Of a stretch of 64,000 bases of DNA, positions 70 to 6,186 are shown in pieces; position 1 is the stretch's first letter, and every line of letters starts with the position of its first letter. The DNA comes from Rufibacter sp. XAAS-G3-1 (GTDB lineage Bacteria > Bacteroidota > Bacteroidia > Cytophagales > Hymenobacteraceae). The stretch spans positions 1-64,000 of the forward strand of contig NZ_JABFAM010000015.1 in NCBI RefSeq assembly GCF_013623775.1, in the 5' to 3' direction. Under the pieces are notes generated by a model, which saw only the letters and a program-made list of their open reading frames with translations, was not told the DNA's origin and did not search any database. Made by a program: the position numbers and the translations under genes.

Positions 70-1706
70 AAATTGCAGCTAACTCTTGGCTAAAGGAGAG
101 CTACAATAGTTGCTTCCTCCCTGGCTTGAAGAATTTTCTACCCCTTGCGCCAAAGAAGCCTTAAAAAAAGCCTGCTGGTCAGGCCTGGGCAGCGCCATAA
201 CACCTGTTTGGGCTCTTTTCCGGGTGAAGCGCATCAGTTTCTGCAGGTTGTAGGCCGCGGCGGCCAGCAGCATCCCCTTCTGGGCCTGTTGGATGCCCCT
301 GGTGTTGATCTTCCTCATGCCCATGAAGTTGATGAGCGTGCCCAGCACGGGCTCCACCGTCGCCTGCCGGAGCCCTTTCATCTTTCGCCCATAGCGGCTT
401 TTCAGGCGGGCGATCACCCGCTCGTACTCATCGCGGCAGTAGGTGATCCCCGCCTTCTTCTCGTGGCCCTTGCCGATGCAGCCCTCCCGCAGGGGGCAGC
501 CCTTGCAGTCCCTGCGGGTGGTGAGGTAGACCTTCTTCTTGATGTTGCCCTTCGGCTCCACCTTGACCTTCCGGAACGTGGCTTTCTTTCCCTGCGGGCA
601 GACCCAGCAGTCCCCTTCCTTGTCGTAGGTGAAGCCCTCCGGCGCTCCCTTGTAGGTGCCGTGCGGCGGGATGAAGGCCGTGATGCCTTCCTGCTCAAGC
701 AAGGCGTAGTTCTCGCCCGAGGAGTAGCCCGCATCAGCCAAGACGGTGCCGCAGCCAAGATGCAGGCTTTGCAGTCTATGGGTGAGGCCCTCGAGCAGAC
801 GGGGCAGGCACTGGTTGTCCTTCCTGTCGGCCTGCACGTGGGTGATGGTGTGGCGTCCGGTGTCCACGGCCACCTGCGCCAGGTAGCAGAGCCTGCGGGC
901 CTTGCCGGGCTTGACGGCGATGCGCGCGTCCGGGCCCACGGGGGAGTAGTGCGTCTTGTTGGAGGTGTACTTGCTGTTTTTGCTGCGGGCTCCGGTTCTG
1001 TAGTCCTGCTCCAGGCTCCACTTCCTGTTGCGGGCCTTGATCTCCAGCAGCTCATCGGAAGAGGCGGTAATCGTCTGCTGCTCCAGGGAGGCTTTGTTAA
1101 AAGCCGCTTTTCTGTCGCCGCGGCTGATGGCCCTGACCCGCTCCAGGTGTGCGTCCAAGTCCTGATGGGGTACCTTCAGCTCGAGCGAGCCCATGGAGGC
1201 GTTGGCCTTGACCAAGGCTGAGTCCACCGCCTGGGTGTGCCCCGCCACCATGCCCGCCTCCACGCATAGGGAGAGCACCCGGGTGAAGACCTCCTCGAAG
1301 GGAGACCCGGGCAGCAGCTGGCGGGTGCGCGAGACGGTGGAGTGCCAGGGCAAGGGCTCGCCAAGTTGGTAACCCAAAAAGTAGAGCAGGTCCAGCCTGA
1401 GGCCGCAGTGCTCGATGAGGCTGCGGTCGGAGACGATGTTCTCAAGGTAGCCCACCAGGCAGAGCCTGAAGAACACCGCCGGGTCGATGGACTGCTGGCC
1501 GCAGGTGCCATAGTAGGGACGGGTGAGAGCGTGGAGGAAGTGTAGGTCCAGCCGGTCTTTGAGCCTGCGGTAGAAGTTGTGCTCCGGCACGTGCGCCGAA
1601 AGCGAGAAGCGCAGTTCCCGCTCGTCGGCAAAGTGCTTCCTGCCCTGCATCGGTAAAAAGAGTTGGTGGAACATCCTTTTACGTGTATCTTCAGTCGGTT
1701 GTGCAA
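70..1706 (-). mobile_element. IS1182-type insertion sequence (approximate ends)
   Basis: The element is defined by its single transposase gene, which runs leftward. Its ends are uncertain. A TTGCA at 74-78 on the plus strand and a TTGCA read inward from 1706 on the minus strand are the best terminal inverted repeat I can see, and similarity beyond those five bases is weak. The right end abuts or overlaps the first attC-like site of the toxin-antitoxin cassette. Confidence 0.45.
79..1674 (-). CDS. IS1182-family transposase
   Basis: DDE transposase of about 531 residues. The N-terminal third resembles the DUF772 domain of IS5/IS1182 transposases (YGTCGQQSIDPAVFFRLCLVGYL and following). The middle part carries the first catalytic Asp in TQAVDSALVKA and a second in VLADAGYSSGENY. 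The C-terminal third holds a Cys cluster (CWVCPQG, CKGCPLREGC) typical of the IS1182 group and ends with a conserved Glu region (ATVEPVLG...NFMGMRK). The Met at 1674 (MFHQLFL) is preferred to one at 1713, because the upstream 13 codons run into the attC-like repeat. The frame is intact, so the element may be active. Family assignment is confident; exact subgroup is not. Confidence 0.9.
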   Translation of the reverse strand: MFHQLFLPMQGRKHFADERELRFSLSAHVPEHNFYRRLKDRLDLHFLHALTRPYYGTCGQQSIDPAVFFRLCLVGYLENIVSDRSLIEHCGLRLDLLYFLGYQLGEPLPWHSTVSRTRQLLPGSPFEEVFTRVLSLCVEAGMVAGHTQAVDSALVKANASMGSLELKVPHQDLDAHLERVRAISRGDRKAAFNKASLEQQTITASSDELLEIKARNRKWSLEQDYRTGARSKNSKYTSNKTHYSPVGPDARIAVKPGKARRLCYLAQVAVDTGRHTITHVQADRKDNQCLPRLLEGLTHRLQSLHLGCGTVLADAGYSSGENYALLEQEGITAFIPPHGTYKGAPEGFTYDKEGDCWVCPQGKKATFRKVKVEPKGNIKKKVYLTTRRDCKGCPLREGCIGKGHEKKAGITYCRDEYERVIARLKSRYGRKMKGLRQATVEPVLGTLINFMGMRKINTRGIQQAQKGMLLAAAAYNLQKLMRFTRKRAQTGVMALPRPDQQAFFKASLAQGVENSSSQGGSNYCSSPLAKS

Positions 1707-1773
1707 CAAGCACACTGTGTAAAAGTCATCTCGGCCGACGGCCTCCGCCGTCGTTTAGCCAAGCCGTTGGGTG
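1701..1773 (+). repeat. attC-like site 1 (cassette boundary)
   Basis: This stretch aligns with the site at 2441-2510: ACTGTGTAAAAGTCAT matches ATTGTATAAAAATCAT, and GGCCGACGGCCTC matches GGCCGACAGCCTC. It ends CCGTTGGGTG, an integron-type G|TTRRRY core at 1766-1773. The left half is less clear and may be damaged by the neighbouring insertion sequence. Confidence 0.5.
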
Positions 1774-1802
1774 CAATGTTAAACAATCTTCACCAGAAGG
1801 GA

Positions 1803-1830
1803 TTGTATCCGTATAAAAAGGATAAATTTG
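1803..1830 (+). promoter_or_regulatory. possible Bacteroidota promoter for the toxin-antitoxin pair
   Basis: TAAATTTG at 1823-1830 fits the Bacteroidota -7 motif TAnnTTTG and lies 17 bp before the antitoxin ATG. A TTG at 1803-1805 is the only -33 candidate, with a spacer of 17 that is slightly short. This is a motif match only. Confidence 0.3.
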
Positions 1831-1847
1831 GAAAAGGAAAAACTACA

Positions 1848-2081
1848 ATGGACGCATTAATCAATAGAATTACCTTAAACCCAGAAATCTGTCATGGGAA
1901 GCCTACCATCAGGAACATGCGCTACCCAGTAGAAATGATATTGGATTTGCTTTCCTCAGGGATGACCTTTAATGAAATAATGGAAGATTACCCTGCGATT
2001 GAGGAAGAAGACATCAAAGCATGCCTAGCCTTCGCCTCTAGGCTAACCAAAATCAAAGCGATACACAAAGTGGTTGCATGA
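1848..2081 (+). CDS. DUF433 antitoxin
   Basis: Protein of 77 residues: MDALINRITLNPEICHGKPT, then IRNMRYPVEMILDLLSSGMT and DYPAIEEEDIKACLAFA. This is the standard DUF433 layout: a short beta pair with the P-x-I-R-x-x-R/Y-P-V motif, then a helix-turn-helix-like region. DUF433 proteins are the usual partner of DUF5615 PIN-like toxins and act as the antitoxin, probably also repressing the operon. The stop overlaps the next start (ATGA), so translation is coupled. An upstream in-frame extension to 1683 crosses the attC-like site and is rejected as start. The pair lies between two attC-like sites, as an integron cassette would. Confidence 0.85.
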   Translation: MDALINRITLNPEICHGKPTIRNMRYPVEMILDLLSSGMTFNEIMEDYPAIEEEDIKACLAFASRLTKIKAIHKVVA

Positions 2082-2431
2082 AATTTATCGTAGACGCCCA
2101 GCTCCCAAACGGGATTGCATGGATATTGAACAACAGGGGTTTCGACGCGTTGCATACAGACAATCTTCCAGACCAAGAAAGAACGACCGACAATCAAATC
2201 AGGGAAATATCTATCAAAGAAAACAGGATTGTAGTCACAAAGGACTCTGATTTCCTTGATTCCCACTACATAAAAAATATACCGGAGAGGCTATTACTCA
2301 TTTCAACTGGCAACATCAGTAACAAAGAACTTTACAATATTTTTGGAAATAATCTGCATCAGATAATTGATTTGTTTGCCACCTGTAACTTAGTTGAGAT
2401 GGACAATACAGAAATAATCGGGCACGGTTAA
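2078..2431 (+). CDS. DUF5615 PIN-like toxin
   Basis: Protein of 117 residues. It starts MKFIVDAQLPNGIAWIL, where the Asp after FIV is the first acidic residue of PIN-like nucleases. The second acidic pair is in VVTKDSDFLDSHY, followed by ERLLLISTGNISN. This is the DUF5615 (Mut7-C/PIN-like) pattern, predicted to be an RNA-cleaving toxin controlled by the upstream DUF433 protein. Start and stop overlap with the antitoxin by 4 bp. The next attC-like site begins 10 bp after the stop, so the two genes fill the putative cassette. RNase activity is inferred from the family. Confidence 0.85.
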   Translation: MKFIVDAQLPNGIAWILNNRGFDALHTDNLPDQERTTDNQIREISIKENRIVVTKDSDFLDSHYIKNIPERLLLISTGNISNKELYNIFGNNLHQIIDLFATCNLVEMDNTEIIGHG

Positions 2432-2866: not shown

Positions 2867-2951
2867 TCCCTATAAATGCACGGGGTGCCCACGTGAAAAC
2901 GTAGGCTGAGATGATACCCGACACCTGATTTGGATAATGCCAACGTAGGGA
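2867..2951 (+). promoter_or_regulatory. TPP (thiamin pyrophosphate) riboswitch
   Basis: The THI-box elements occur in order: ACGGGGTGCCC at about 2880, GGCTGAGATGATACCC at about 2913, ACCTGATTTGGATAATGCC at about 2932, and CGTAGGGA at about 2944. The closing stem pairs TCCCTA (2867-2872) with TAGGGA (2946-2951). TPP riboswitches bind thiamin pyrophosphate and lower expression of the gene downstream. The element lies 85 bp before the methyltransferase start and points at it, so the four-gene operon at 3037-5748 should be repressed by TPP. Confidence 0.93.
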
Positions 2952-2980
2952 TGCAGGATGAAAGGACTCCTTTGTATACT

Positions 2981-3020
2981 CCATTCCGTTGGTCTGCCCA
3001 ATTGAATGGATTTTTTGTTT
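2981..3020 (+). terminator. terminator of the riboswitch expression platform
   Basis: CCATTC (2981-2986) pairs with GAATGG (3004-3009), extended inside by GTTGG against CCAAT with a G-U pair. The stem is followed at once by ATTTTTTGTTTT. Its place between aptamer and first gene suggests control by transcription termination. Confidence 0.7.
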
Positions 3021-3036
3021 TACAACAATACGTACC

Positions 3037-3762
3037 ATGGAGCTAGAGAAACACACCGCCGGATTACTCCCCCAAACGCAGCAGAACTGGCAGAACAGAT
3101 CAGAATGGTTCTTTAACCGAGCCCATACAGACACATACGAGCAATGGTACGAAGGACGGTACAAACGAGCCGAAATCTGGCAGAAGAAAGTCATGGAACA
3201 ACTGGTGTCCAAAGACACCCGGGTAAAAACCCTGCTGGAGTTTGGCTGCGGCACTACCCGTTTTACCAGATGGTGGAAAGAGATAGGCATAGAAGCCACC
3301 GGAGGCGACATTTCGCCCCTCATGCTGTCACAGGCCATTCATTTATTTGACGGTGATCTGGTCATGGCAGACTCCCACCACATGCCTTTTAAGGATAATA
3401 CCTTTGATGCCCTGGCCTTTATCACCACGTTTGAATATTACAAAGACCCCGTGCAAGTGATCAGAGAGGCTGCGCGGGTAGCCCGGTACGGCATAGCCAT
3501 GGGCATGATGAACCGAAACTCGCCCAAAGTGGCAAGAAGGCGGGTGCAGCAGTTATTCGGTAAAAATCCGTTCTATGTGACGGCCACTTTTTACACCCCG
3601 CAGAAACTCATGGAGATCATTCACCACGCTCTGGCCGGAAGGGAATATTCCATAGAATGGACGTGTACCGGCTTGCCGAAATGGTTTCCGGTGCAGCAGT
3701 GGAGTTTGCCCTACGGTGACTTCTTCGGGTTATATGTCACACTCCATGACGTAAAAAGATGA
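3037..3762 (+). CDS. class I SAM-dependent methyltransferase, first gene of TPP-riboswitch operon
   Basis: Protein of 241 residues. A 60-residue N-terminal helix region rich in Trp and aromatics precedes a Rossmann methyltransferase domain: motif I LLEFGCGTTRF (about residue 67), acidic end of strand 2 in GGDISPLML, motif II/III MADSHHMPFKDNTFDAL, then FITTFEYYKDPVQVIREAAR. It belongs to the Methyltransf_11 group; the substrate cannot be read from the sequence. The ATG at 3037 is used because the upstream extension to 2989 overlaps the riboswitch terminator. It overlaps the next gene by ATGA. The operon's last gene encodes a Trm112-like protein, a known type of methyltransferase activator. 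The riboswitch suggests the methylated product belongs to thiamin synthesis, salvage or use. Confidence 0.85.
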   Translation: MELEKHTAGLLPQTQQNWQNRSEWFFNRAHTDTYEQWYEGRYKRAEIWQKKVMEQLVSKDTRVKTLLEFGCGTTRFTRWWKEIGIEATGGDISPLMLSQAIHLFDGDLVMADSHHMPFKDNTFDALAFITTFEYYKDPVQVIREAARVARYGIAMGMMNRNSPKVARRRVQQLFGKNPFYVTATFYTPQKLMEIIHHALAGREYSIEWTCTGLPKWFPVQQWSLPYGDFFGLYVTLHDVKR

Positions 3763-4811
3763 ACGATACATCCGGTAAAATCAGCCAGGCGTCTTTTGAG
3801 CAGTTGGTGCTCTCAAAATGCGGTTCTAAACGAGAAGAGGTGCGCGTAGGGCCTCACTTTGGGGTAGACGTGTCCCTCATAGATTTACCCGGCCTAATGA
3901 CCATGGCCGTGACCAGCGATCCCTTGTCCCTTATCCCCTCGTTGGGGCTGGAAGAGTCGGCCTGGCTTTCGGTTCATCTGATGGCCAATGACATGGCTAC
4001 CACCGGTTTCGCCCCCATGTACGGGCAATTCGTGCTGAATCTTCCGGCAGTTCTCTCAAAGAATGACTTCAAACTCTATTGGGAGTACATTGATAAATTC
4101 TGCACCGAGATTGGGGTAGCTATTACCGGTGGGCACACGGGTTTTATGGAAGGGCAAAATTCCACAATCGCCGGGGGCGGAACCTTTATCACCGTGGCCC
4201 CCAAAGCCGAGGTACTGGTTTCTAAATACGCCCAGCCGGGCAACTCCATCTTGGTCACCAAAGAAGCGGCCCTCTCTTCCTCGGCCATTCTGGCCATGAG
4301 CTTTCCTGAAACCGTCAGAAACAAAATAGGCCCCGAGAATTACCAGAATGCCTGCCGCCTGTTCTATCAAACTTCCTCGCTCCAAGATGCGCTCACCGCG
4401 GTAGGCGGGAACCGGCCGGGTGCTGTCACGGCCATGCATGATGTCACGGAGGGCGGGCTGTTGGGAGCCATTTATGAACTGGCCTGGGCCTCGGGCAACG
4501 GGGCCGTCATTTATAATGAGCAACTCCCTATAGGCCACGTGCAGCAGGAAATTTGCAATCTGTTTTCCATAGATCCCCGCTATTCCATTGGGGCGGGTTC
4601 CATGATTATCTGTTGCCACAAAGGTACGGCCCCGTCTGTGATAGAGCGCTTACACCGTGAAAACATACCGTGTGTAGAGGTGGGTGAGATCAAGGAAAAG
4701 GACTTCGGCATAAAACTGGTTCAAAACGGGGTGGCGCAGGACTTGGTGTATCAGGCAGAAGACCCGTATTGGGCCGCTTTCTTCCAGGCGTACAAGGCAG
4801 GATGGAAATGA
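3759..4811 (+). CDS. HypE/PurM-like (AIR synthase-related) protein
   Basis: Protein of 350 residues with the two-domain PurM fold. N-terminal half: VTSDPLSLIPSLGLEESAW, MANDMATTGFAPMY and GGHTGFMEG, which match the AIRS N-terminal domain as found in HypE-like members. C-terminal half: MHDVTEGGLLGAIYELAW, matching the HypE HDxTRGGL segment with Glu in place of Arg. It lacks the C-terminal PRIC cysteine used by true HypE, and no hydrogenase genes are nearby. Relatives bind ATP and phosphorylate or activate a substrate; ThiL, the thiamin-phosphate kinase, is one. In a TPP-controlled operon a kinase or ATP-dependent activation step on a thiamin-related compound is plausible but inferred. The stop overlaps the next gene. 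Confidence 0.8.
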   Translation: MNDTSGKISQASFEQLVLSKCGSKREEVRVGPHFGVDVSLIDLPGLMTMAVTSDPLSLIPSLGLEESAWLSVHLMANDMATTGFAPMYGQFVLNLPAVLSKNDFKLYWEYIDKFCTEIGVAITGGHTGFMEGQNSTIAGGGTFITVAPKAEVLVSKYAQPGNSILVTKEAALSSSAILAMSFPETVRNKIGPENYQNACRLFYQTSSLQDALTAVGGNRPGAVTAMHDVTEGGLLGAIYELAWASGNGAVIYNEQLPIGHVQQEICNLFSIDPRYSIGAGSMIICCHKGTAPSVIERLHRENIPCVEVGEIKEKDFGIKLVQNGVAQDLVYQAEDPYWAAFFQAYKAGWK

Positions 4812-5449
4812 TGGGTAAGCGGAAGATATCCTCGGGAATCTATCTGGTGGTGGATCCCTCCCTGGAGGAAAAGGTATTGCTGCGTAAGCTGGAGGTCATT
4901 CTGGAAGAACAGCTGGCGGCCCTGCAGATATGGGATAACTTTTATGCGGGCCAGCATGTCTATGGGCTTATCCAGAAAATAGTAGACCTGTGCCATGCCA
5001 AAGAAGTGCCGGTACTCATCAACAATAAGTGGGAGTTTCTTATGGACACAGCCCTGGACGGCGTGCATTTTGACGTTATTCCTGCTGATTTTGCGGCTAT
5101 CCAGAAAGCCGTGAACCGGCCCTTCCTTACCGGCCTCACGTGCGGCAATGATGAGGCATTGGTAAAATGGGCGCAGGAAGAGCAGTTAGATTATATTTCT
5201 TTCTGCTCCGTTTTTCCTTCGGCAACCAGCACTAGCTGTGAACTGGTCACCTTTGAATCCATTGCCAGGGCGAAAAAGATAAGTTCTCTGCCCGTTTTTC
5301 TGGCGGGCGGAATCAAACCCGACAACCTACAGCAACTTGCCGGATTGGAGTACGAGGGAGTAGCGGTCATCTCCGGCATCATGAATTCTGAACACCCAAG
5401 TGCCGCCGTGCAAGAATACGTAAAAAGGTTACCTAAAAACAAAGCATGA
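4802..5449 (+). CDS. ThiE/TenI-superfamily protein with divergent active site
   Basis: TIM-barrel protein of 215 residues. Recognisable ThiE-fold segments are GIYLVVDPS, VPVLINNKWEFL, TALDGVHFDVIPADF, LDYISFCSVFPSATS, PVFLAGGIKPDN and YEGVAVISGIMNS. Thiamin-phosphate synthase normally shows Q-x-R-x-K near residues 35-45 and ND in the IINDR motif. Here the first region reads LQIWDNF and the second LINN, so the pyrophosphate-binding residues look changed. TenI thiazole tautomerases or a new activity are therefore possible. Candidate ATGs are 4802, 4808 and 4811, all overlapping the previous gene's end. It overlaps the next gene by ATGA. Superfamily is confident; the reaction is unknown. Confidence 0.78.
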   Translation: MEMMGKRKISSGIYLVVDPSLEEKVLLRKLEVILEEQLAALQIWDNFYAGQHVYGLIQKIVDLCHAKEVPVLINNKWEFLMDTALDGVHFDVIPADFAAIQKAVNRPFLTGLTCGNDEALVKWAQEEQLDYISFCSVFPSATSTSCELVTFESIARAKKISSLPVFLAGGIKPDNLQQLAGLEYEGVAVISGIMNSEHPSAAVQEYVKRLPKNKA

Positions 5450-5748
5450 AACTAGAAACCATTGAAAAGCTGTGCTGTCCTTTTGACAAAGCAGATATAG
5501 AACTAACCGTGATCACCCAGAGCCCCACCGGTACTATTCTGGAAGGGTTACTCGCCTGCAACACCTGTGCACGGGTGTATCCTATTGTAAAAGGCATCCC
5601 TATCATGAACCCAGACGAGTACCGTGAATACAAGCTGGAACAACCCTTACTGGACAAATGGAAACCTTTCCTCAAGGGCAGGCAGATTGAGAATTTCCGA
5701 TTTCTTACCCCAGAAAAAGGCAATGAGCCGCTTGCCCTAACCTCCTAA
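5446..5748 (+). CDS. Trm112-family zinc-ribbon-like protein
   Basis: Protein of 100 residues. MKLETIEKLCCPFDKADIEL starts the family's first half, with cysteines where a CPxC/H pair is usual. LLACNTCARVYPIVKGIPIM is the typical second half (C-x2-C, then YPI-x2-GIP). Trm112 proteins bind and activate class I methyltransferases acting on tRNA, release factors or rRNA, and short bacterial Trm112-like proteins are also common. Because the operon starts with a methyltransferase, the simplest idea is that the two form a complex. This is inference from context. The last 40 residues are an unusual tail. Confidence 0.82.
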   Translation: MKLETIEKLCCPFDKADIELTVITQSPTGTILEGLLACNTCARVYPIVKGIPIMNPDEYREYKLEQPLLDKWKPFLKGRQIENFRFLTPEKGNEPLALTS

Positions 5749-6186
5749 ACCGCATGTCCCGCTTCTGGCCTAGCACGCAGGTTGGCCAGCAGCGGGGCAC
5801 ACAGGTCAATGCTTAGTGCGGTAGGGCCCCTGGGGTTTCCCCGTAACAATCTCGCAATAGTAGCTTCCTGCAAATAAATGCCCCGTACCTACACCAGGCA
5901 TCGTCAAATCAGCTAACTTCCCTGAAAACCATTTTCCTCCACTTCGCAAAGCAGTTCTACCGTCAGAAAAACGGAACCTGAATCGAGTTTCTGTTTGGAA
6001 CAAAAAGCAATGTTTCCGCGGGTGCCTGTGTCTGTTCGTGTCCCCGTTTTAGGTCTGTTTTGGCGAAATTACGTCAAAAGCAGAGATAGCACACCTAAGC
6101 AGACGCTTGCGCAAGGAGCGAAGAAAGTACGAACTAGAAGCAAGTGCAGAAACCACGGGGTCCTTCCCTTCTAACCCTCTACAAGC
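5749..6186. other. intergenic stretch of 438 bp
   Basis: After the hairpin at 5758-5796 I see only a degenerate half copy of the 38-bp palindrome near 6043-6083 (CGTTTTAGGTCTGTTTT without a good right arm). No gene is supported. Confidence 0.5.
5758..5796 (+). terminator. hairpin after the TPP operon
   Basis: CCCGCTTCTGGCC (5758-5770) pairs with GGCCAGCAGCGGG (5784-5796), 12 of 13 positions, starting 9 bp after the last stop codon. There is no T-run, so it may terminate weakly or protect the 3' end. Confidence 0.5.

What the first reader, a model, noticed from the sequence alone, without database searches (positions are those of the whole stretch)
2867..5796. TPP-riboswitch operon of methyltransferase, HypE/PurM-like, ThiE/TenI-like and Trm112-like genes: candidate undescribed thiamin-linked pathway
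Seen: a TPP aptamer and terminator, then four genes each overlapping the next by a few bases and closed by a hairpin. Known: TPP riboswitches control thiamin synthesis, salvage and transport genes. No ThiC, ThiD, ThiG, ThiH, ThiM, transporter or TonB receptor is present. Inference: the four proteins make or repair a thiamin-related compound, with the methyltransferase and HypE-like ATPase as unusual steps.
Basis: partly seen in the sequence, partly recalled or inferred. Interest (0 to 1): 0.9.

Follow-up and report, generated by a model that had tools for sequence, protein, structure and literature searches.

The report
Undescribed thiamin-controlled four-gene operon
Many Bacteroidota bacteria carry a mobile set of four genes switched by a vitamin B1 sensor RNA; it matches no known B1 pathway and occurs mostly in species that lack the usual B1-making genes, so it probably recovers or repairs the vitamin by chemistry not yet known.

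Summary
A TPP riboswitch (RF00059, 62.8 bits) with a terminator-like hairpin precedes four overlapping genes: a class I methyltransferase, a HypE/ThiL-superfamily ATPase, a ThiE-like barrel and a Trm112 protein. It is a fixed unit: in 102 distinct loci examined, 99 show all four genes in this order and 3 are cut by contig ends; 101 have the aptamer, and the exception has a truncated methyltransferase match. No flanking gene recurs, and the tree suggests horizontal transfer. The 13 carriers in a 395-genome Bacteroidota sample lack ThiC, full-length ThiG and any other full-length ThiE; 12 lack ThiD above cut-off; all keep a canonical ThiL. Over 62 carriers ThiC occurs in 4, against 138 of 382 non-carriers. 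Riemerella anatipestifer, a carrier species, is reported to need thiamin, so de novo synthesis is unlikely. The ThiE-like protein lost the Arg and Lys residues of ThiE's pyrophosphate motif, so it is probably no ordinary thiamin-phosphate synthase. Best reading: a TPP-repressed salvage or repair pathway without a classical pyrimidine-pyrophosphate step, with Trm112 activating the methyltransferase. Substrates are unknown. My searches of the open literature listed no description.

The parts
2871..2968 (+). TPP riboswitch aptamer (RF00059)
   Evidence: cmscan 62.8 bits, E 5.9e-10
2980..3010 (+). terminator-like hairpin followed by a U run; probable OFF expression platform
   Evidence: fold z -3.9; hairpin plus T-rich tail in 54 of 88 loci with a readable core against 21 of 264 shuffles
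3037..3762 (+). class I SAM methyltransferase, 241 aa; most conserved of the three larger proteins
   Evidence: PF08241 1.2e-17; mean column identity 77% over 47 sequences; Foldseek ranks 5-6 are a Trm112-bound archaeal methyltransferase, 6f5z (model of modest confidence)
3759..4811 (+). AIRS/HypE/ThiL-superfamily ATPase-like protein, 350 aa
   Evidence: PF02769 2.4e-18; below the hypE, thiL and selD equivalog cut-offs; AlphaFold pLDDT 93.3, nearest HypE with TM (query) 0.80
4808..5449 (+). ThiE/TenI-like TIM-barrel protein without the pyrophosphate-binding Arg/Lys residues, 212-213 aa
   Evidence: PF02581 3.8e-30; TIGR00693 100.4 against a cut-off of 145.1; alignments with canonical ThiE
5446..5748 (+). 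Trm112-like zinc-knuckle protein, 100 aa
   Evidence: PF03966 1.3e-6; NF038101 partner Trm112 56.6 bits, cut-off 77
5755..5799 (+). GC-rich hairpin after the last gene, no U run
   Evidence: fold z -3.3 for 5735-5830

Best explanation
A horizontally moving operon that lets bacteria mostly lacking de novo synthesis obtain more usable thiamin from imported thiamin-like material. SHOWN: a TPP aptamer precedes the genes in nearly every copy, in most with a terminator-like hairpin; gene order is fixed; the carriers tested mostly lack ThiC (58 of 62), and the 13 tested further lack full-length ThiG and canonical ThiE, 12 of them ThiD, while all 13 keep ThiL; the ThiE-like barrel lacks the Arg and Lys of the ThiE pyrophosphate motif but keeps the GGI and VxS loops. 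INFERRED from families: TPP shuts transcription off; the methyltransferase works as a heterodimer with the Trm112 protein; the HypE/ThiL-like protein phosphorylates or activates a substrate with ATP; the ThiE-like barrel binds a thiazole-phosphate and/or the pyrimidine, or a damaged TMP, and acts on the bond between them or on the ring without pyrophosphate as leaving group; the product, thiamin or TMP, goes to TPP through ThiL or TPK. SPECULATIVE: methylation turns the group attached to the pyrimidine methylene into a leaving group, so that the barrel can join the pyrimidine to thiazole-phosphate.
For: Aptamer in 101 of 102 loci; two of the four proteins belong to superfamilies that contain thiamin enzymes; ThiC 0 of 13 and 4 of 62 against 138 of 382; full-length ThiG 0 of 13, ThiD above cut-off 1 of 13, other full-length ThiE 0 of 13, ThiL 13 of 13, TPK 11 of 13; in each of the 13 carriers another TPP aptamer precedes a large ORF that reads like a TonB receptor (one of the 13 tested in Pfam); a carrier species needs thiamin.
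Against: No substrate, activity or expression data. A methyltransferase has no obvious place in any thiamin salvage route I know. 4 of 62 carriers have ThiC, so the operon is not strictly for non-makers. The Riemerella growth data are for the species and its type strain; the named carrier is strain CCUG25054. The ThiC association is not corrected for kinship: 15 of the 20 non-carriers listed first also lack ThiC. ThiL is no sign of the operon, since all 20 non-carriers have it too.
Confidence: 0.55

Rival explanations
1. A new de novo route to thiamin, or to its pyrimidine or thiazole half, that replaces ThiC and/or ThiG.
Against: R. anatipestifer carries the operon and is reported to need thiamin. 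In a leaf-bacteria study the table rows for ThiC (7 and 100) and ThiG (14 and 100) with n 14 and 21 read, as I take them, as percent of thiamin auxotrophs and prototrophs, so every tested prototroph had both (PMC9666465, passages; whether any strain carries the operon is unknown). Three enzymes are few for both halves plus coupling.
Confidence: 0.15
2. The operon makes, modifies or detoxifies a thiamin antivitamin or a TPP-derived compound rather than supplying TPP.
For: A methyltransferase would fit an antivitamin of the methoxy kind; bacimethrin and methoxythiamin are named in PMC12345177 (search listing and start of abstract).
Against: A TPP-repressed operon (inferred from aptamer plus hairpin) in species mostly without ThiC points to supply; no flanking gene family recurs in more than 6 of 80 loci, so no export or resistance partner is evident.
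Confidence: 0.1
3. Methyltransferase-Trm112 is an RNA- or protein-modifying enzyme carried along with two mis-annotated but ordinary thiamin genes (ThiL-like and ThiE-like duplicates).
For: Known Trm112 partners modify tRNA, rRNA and a release factor (PMC5372719, passages); the methyltransferase also hits Bud23.
Against: The four genes stay together in 99 loci where all can be seen (the loci were found by the ATPase or the methyltransferase, so lone copies of the other genes would be missed); the ATPase and barrel fall below the thiL, thiE and TenI cut-offs; the 13 carriers already have a canonical ThiL and 12 of 13 no ThiD to feed a ThiE.
Confidence: 0.08

Closest known systems
TPP-riboswitch thiamin operons of Bacteroidota (thiSEGCHF-tenI, OMthi, pnuT-tnr3; PMC5613172, passages)
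   Same: TPP aptamer in front of a co-directional operon; includes a ThiE/TenI-superfamily gene
   Different: None of ThiC, ThiG, ThiH, ThiS, ThiF, transporter or TPK in the operon; contains a methyltransferase, a HypE-like ATPase and Trm112; carriers mostly lack ThiC
ThiE, thiamin phosphate synthase (TIGR00693, PDB 1g69/3o16)
   Same: TIM-barrel family, full-length profile match, GGI and VxS loops, Gln of the QxRxK motif
   Different: QxRxK has become QxWxN or QxWxH in the sequences compared (QLYHT in the divergent L161), the Lys after the TxT loop is absent, two Cys are invariant in 47 sequences; 100 bits against a cut-off of 145
HypE, ThiL and SelD (PurM/AIRS superfamily)
   Same: Fold (query TM 0.80 to HypE, about 0.6-0.73 to ThiL and SelD)
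   Different: Below every equivalog cut-off; invariant His where HypE has Asp (GHT for GDT); ends in a conserved DPYWxAFF tail
Trm112-activated methyltransferases (Bud23, archaeal Hvo_0019; PDB 6f5z)
   Same: Class I methyltransferase near Hvo_0019 and Bud23, plus a Trm112 protein with a published zinc signature
   Different: Encoded with two thiamin-superfamily proteins under a TPP aptamer; [quoted passage not shown]

Membership tests
TPP riboswitch (RF00059) | covariance-model score at or above the gathering score | tested here: met
   62.8 against 54.3 bits
TPP riboswitch (RF00059) | TPP binding and TPP-dependent expression | not testable with these tools
   needs in-line probing or a reporter
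ThiE (TIGR00693) | equivalog cut-off | tested here: not met
   100.4 against 145.1 bits
ThiE (TIGR00693) | Arg and Lys of QxRxK and the Lys after TxT (pyrophosphate contacts; roles recalled) | tested here: not met
   Trp, Asn/His and absent in the window and 8 relatives aligned with 4 canonical and 2 TenI-like proteins and in the 47-sequence profile against PDB ThiE
TenI (NF005819) | equivalog cut-off | tested here: not met
   49.7 against 251 bits
ThiL (TIGR01379) | equivalog cut-off | tested here: not met
   59.7 against 184.15 bits; a canonical ThiL lies elsewhere in the genome
HypE (TIGR02124) | equivalog cut-off | tested here: not met
   66.7 against 251.6 bits
HypE (TIGR02124) | C-terminal Cys that carries the thiocarboxamide (recalled) | tested here: not met
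   the window protein ends in a GWK tripeptide, no Cys
SelD (TIGR00476) | equivalog cut-off | tested here: not met
   42.7 against 125 bits
Trm112 | Pfam PF03966 cut-off | tested here: met
   28.6 against 22 bits
Trm112 | NCBIfam NF038101 (archaeal equivalog) cut-off | tested here: not met
   56.6 against 77 bits; the model is for archaea
Trm112 | signature [C/D]PX[C/D]X19-36CX2C (PMC5372719, stated there for an archaeal subfamily) | tested here: met
   C11-P-F-D14, 23 residues, C38-N-T-C41; the four ligand positions at least 99% conserved in 90 rows
Trm112 | binds and activates a methyltransferase | not testable with these tools
   needs co-purification and an assay
de novo thiamin synthesis | ThiC and a thiazole synthase (ThiG or Thi4) in the genome | tested here: not met
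   no ThiC and no full-length ThiG in G000; Thi4 was not tested

The most novel reading that the evidence does not exclude
A thiamin-forming pathway of unknown chemistry: a Trm112-activated methyltransferase and a HypE-like ATPase prepare substrates, and a ThiE-like barrel joins or repairs the pyrimidine-thiazole bond without pyrophosphate. It would give a bacterial Trm112 a pathway and explain how many Bacteroidota without ThiC use thiamin fragments.
Probability: 0.2. Interest if true: 0.95.

Novelty: new variant of a known kind. Interest (0 to 1): 0.78.

Why it matters
Thiamin auxotrophy is usually called from missing ThiC/ThiG. A widespread TPP-controlled operon in just such genomes means that part of vitamin B1 acquisition in Bacteroidota is unread, and its chemistry is unlikely to be the classical HMP-PP plus thiazole-phosphate step. 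It also gives the function of bacterial Trm112, called unknown in 2017, a concrete pathway to test.

Tried and rejected
Considered and set aside: plain ThiE/ThiL duplicates (below all cut-offs; 12 of 13 carriers have no ThiD above cut-off); a hydrogenase or selenium role (HypE and SelD cut-offs not met). ThiM, TenA and Thi4 were not searched. A thiaminase-like role of the two invariant Cys of the ThiE-like protein is only an idea.

Faulty or weak steps: one search picked a wrong ThiE start for L023, and that one-residue row spoils the 99% list for ThiE (I use, which leaves L023 out). One search used a core pattern that missed most aptamers; one search replaces it (93 loci with two double entries; core not found in 5). 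A simple motif missed the aptamer in L100, L110 and L159-L162; covariance models found it. Model R1 was built from 17 operon aptamers, among them L100 and two that recur among the named loci (L019 = L038, L022 = L101), so its 80 of 80 is not wholly independent. Rfam itself was run on 27 of the 102 loci: 25 at or above the gathering score, L029 below it, L163 none. L155, L164 and L165 rest on the motif alone. The terminator scan did not list the 2980-3010 hairpin, probably because its stem is interrupted. Both calls to the pdb_via library failed. The methyltransferase model is weak (pLDDT 72.9; residues 1-42 below 50). The 20 non-carrier genomes are those the tool listed first, not a random draw. 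Only 50 of the 80 named genomes were tested for ThiC (my choice, mostly isolates), and the tool gives no completeness for them. Of 556 relatives only the best 80 were fetched; of the 18 methyltransferase hits, G277 and 12 others were opened and 5 were not.

Literature: searches listed no description of the operon; I saw listings and starts of abstracts (20 of 375, 20 of 36), and only open-licence papers are held.
Full report
WHAT IS THERE. The window holds a TPP aptamer at 2871-2968 (RF00059, 62.8 bits, gathering 54.3), a hairpin with a U run at 2980-3010 (z -3.9; the whole leader z -1.6), and four + strand genes with short overlaps: methyltransferase 3037-3762, AIRS/HypE-like 3759-4811, ThiE-like 4808-5449, Trm112-like 5446-5748. 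A GC-rich hairpin without a U run follows.

IT IS A UNIT. A protein search with the ATPase found homologues at E <= 1e-20 in 13 of 395 Bacteroidota genomes. All 13 have the same four genes in the same order (for the 12 others) and all have the aptamer upstream of the methyltransferase gene (L029 at 47.8 bits is below the gathering score). Methyltransferase and ATPase are adjacent in 80 of 80, the ThiE-like and Trm112 genes follow in 77 of 77 where the contig goes on (L074, L092 and L104 end first), and a covariance model built from 17 operon aptamers hits once upstream of the methyltransferase in 80 of 80, with one further weak hit in 955 kb. In the family of G277 the methyltransferase occurs in 18 of 246 genomes; besides G277, 12 were opened, all with the four genes. 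In one of them (L163) the methyltransferase match covers only residues 82-238 and there is no aptamer; the other 11 have the aptamer (three by motif only). No other gene recurs beside the operon: the commonest flanking ORF family is in 6 of 80 loci.

MOBILITY. In a tree of methyltransferase plus ATPase from the 80 loci and the window, families are split: Pedobacter chinensis is sister to Ferruginibacter paludis (99% SH-aLRT), next to Riemerella; Arenibacter and Algoriphagus each occur in two places. The window's genome has a second, broken copy: aptamer plus part of the methyltransferase gene, 83% mean column identity over the aligned stretch, near a transposase piece. A DDE transposase lies at 79-1713 of the window. 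More than one change per family is no proof of transfer, but together these fit a mobile operon.

REGULATION. A hairpin of -10 kcal/mol or better followed by a T-rich tail lies between aptamer core and start codon in 54 of 88 loci with a readable core, against 21 of 264 shuffled controls (8%; in 5 of 93 loci the core pattern was not found). This fits a TPP-dependent OFF switch in those loci; the rest may act on translation. It is inference; expression was not measured.

THE GENETIC BACKGROUND. I compared the 13 carriers with 20 non-carriers listed first by the tool. ThiC 0 of 13 and 5 of 20. Full-length ThiG 0 of 13 and 6 of 20 (weak partial hits set aside). A full-length ThiE other than the operon's own: 0 of 13. 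ThiD above the cut-off 1 of 13 and 4 of 20. TPK 11 of 13 and 6 of 20; the window's genome and G320 lack it. ThiL 13 of 13 and 20 of 20. Over the whole sample ThiC is in 138 of 395 and never with the operon (hypergeometric P 0.0034). Of 50 named carriers tested (of 80), 4 have ThiC: Ferruginibacter paludis, Gramella sp. AN32, Mucilaginibacter sp. FT3.2 and Mangrovivirga halotolerans. Counting L038 and G277 once gives 4 of 62 against 138 of 382, Fisher P 6e-7, not corrected for kinship. The operon is thus strongly but not absolutely tied to ThiC-less species. In each of the 13 carriers another TPP aptamer precedes a 705-843-residue ORF that reads like a TonB receptor (only that of the window's genome was checked in Pfam), so these cells probably import thiamin-like compounds. 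Further, mostly weaker, aptamer hits in G364, G151 and G171 have no clear partner gene or were not opened; one in G320 precedes a gene that reads like PnuT (not tested).

A PHENOTYPE. R. anatipestifer CCUG25054 has the operon (L045; aptamer 65.4 bits) and no ThiC hit. The genome paper of the type strain says thiamine is required for growth (PMC3111989, passages), and the type strain did not grow in GCB medium without vitamin B1 (PMC8383284, passages). So the operon probably does not give prototrophy.

THE PROTEINS. ThiE-like: profile match to B. subtilis ThiE at 8e-25, but QFREK aligns with QIWDN-type residues and the Lys after TxT is missing, while GGI and VxS remain; two Cys are invariant in 47 sequences. 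That the lost residues bind pyrophosphate is recalled from the ThiE literature. With ThiD above cut-off absent in 12 of 13 carriers, the classical HMP-PP reaction is unlikely. ATPase: model pLDDT 93.3, nearest HypE (query TM 0.80), then ThiL and SelD; GHT replaces the GDT of HypE; below all equivalog cut-offs. Methyltransferase: nearest structures 1vlm, 3l8d and 2gs9, then the Trm112-bound Hvo_0019 (6f5z), from a model of modest confidence; Bud23 appears in the sequence searches. Mean column identity is 77% for the methyltransferase, 65% for the ATPase and 49% for the ThiE-like protein. Trm112: a published zinc signature is met.

MECHANISM. I commit to salvage or repair of imported thiamin-related material under TPP repression, with a methyltransferase-Trm112 heterodimer, an ATP-using activation step and a pyrophosphate-free step on the ThiE-like barrel. 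The order of steps and the substrates are not shown. De novo synthesis remains possible at lower probability.

NOVELTY. Searches of the open library listed no description. PMC5613172 (passages) describes the canonical TPP-controlled operons of gut Bacteroidetes; the word methyltransferase does not occur in its main text. [quoted passage not shown]

Noticed in passing
L005 3797-4444 (own genome, contig C4): A second TPP aptamer with part of a second methyltransferase copy, broken, lying near a DDE transposase fragment.
   Followed up: partly
window 79-1713 (-): DDE transposase (PF13751, PF05598) about 1.2 kb before the aptamer.
   Followed up: partly
window 1683-2431 (+): DUF433 gene overlapping a DUF5615/PIN-like gene, the look of a toxin-antitoxin pair.
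   Followed up: no
L083 8098-8189 (-): A weak extra TPP-like hit just beyond the operon on the opposite strand; not reported by Rfam at the gathering score.
   Followed up: no
G072, G166, G387 (same family as the window): No ThiC, TPK or ThiE hit and no full-length ThiG, but a canonical ThiL and one TPP aptamer before a large ORF that reads like a TonB receptor; how thiamin becomes TMP there is unclear.
   Followed up: partly
L163 (G504): Operon with a methyltransferase match to residues 82-238 only and no aptamer, probably decaying.
   Followed up: partly
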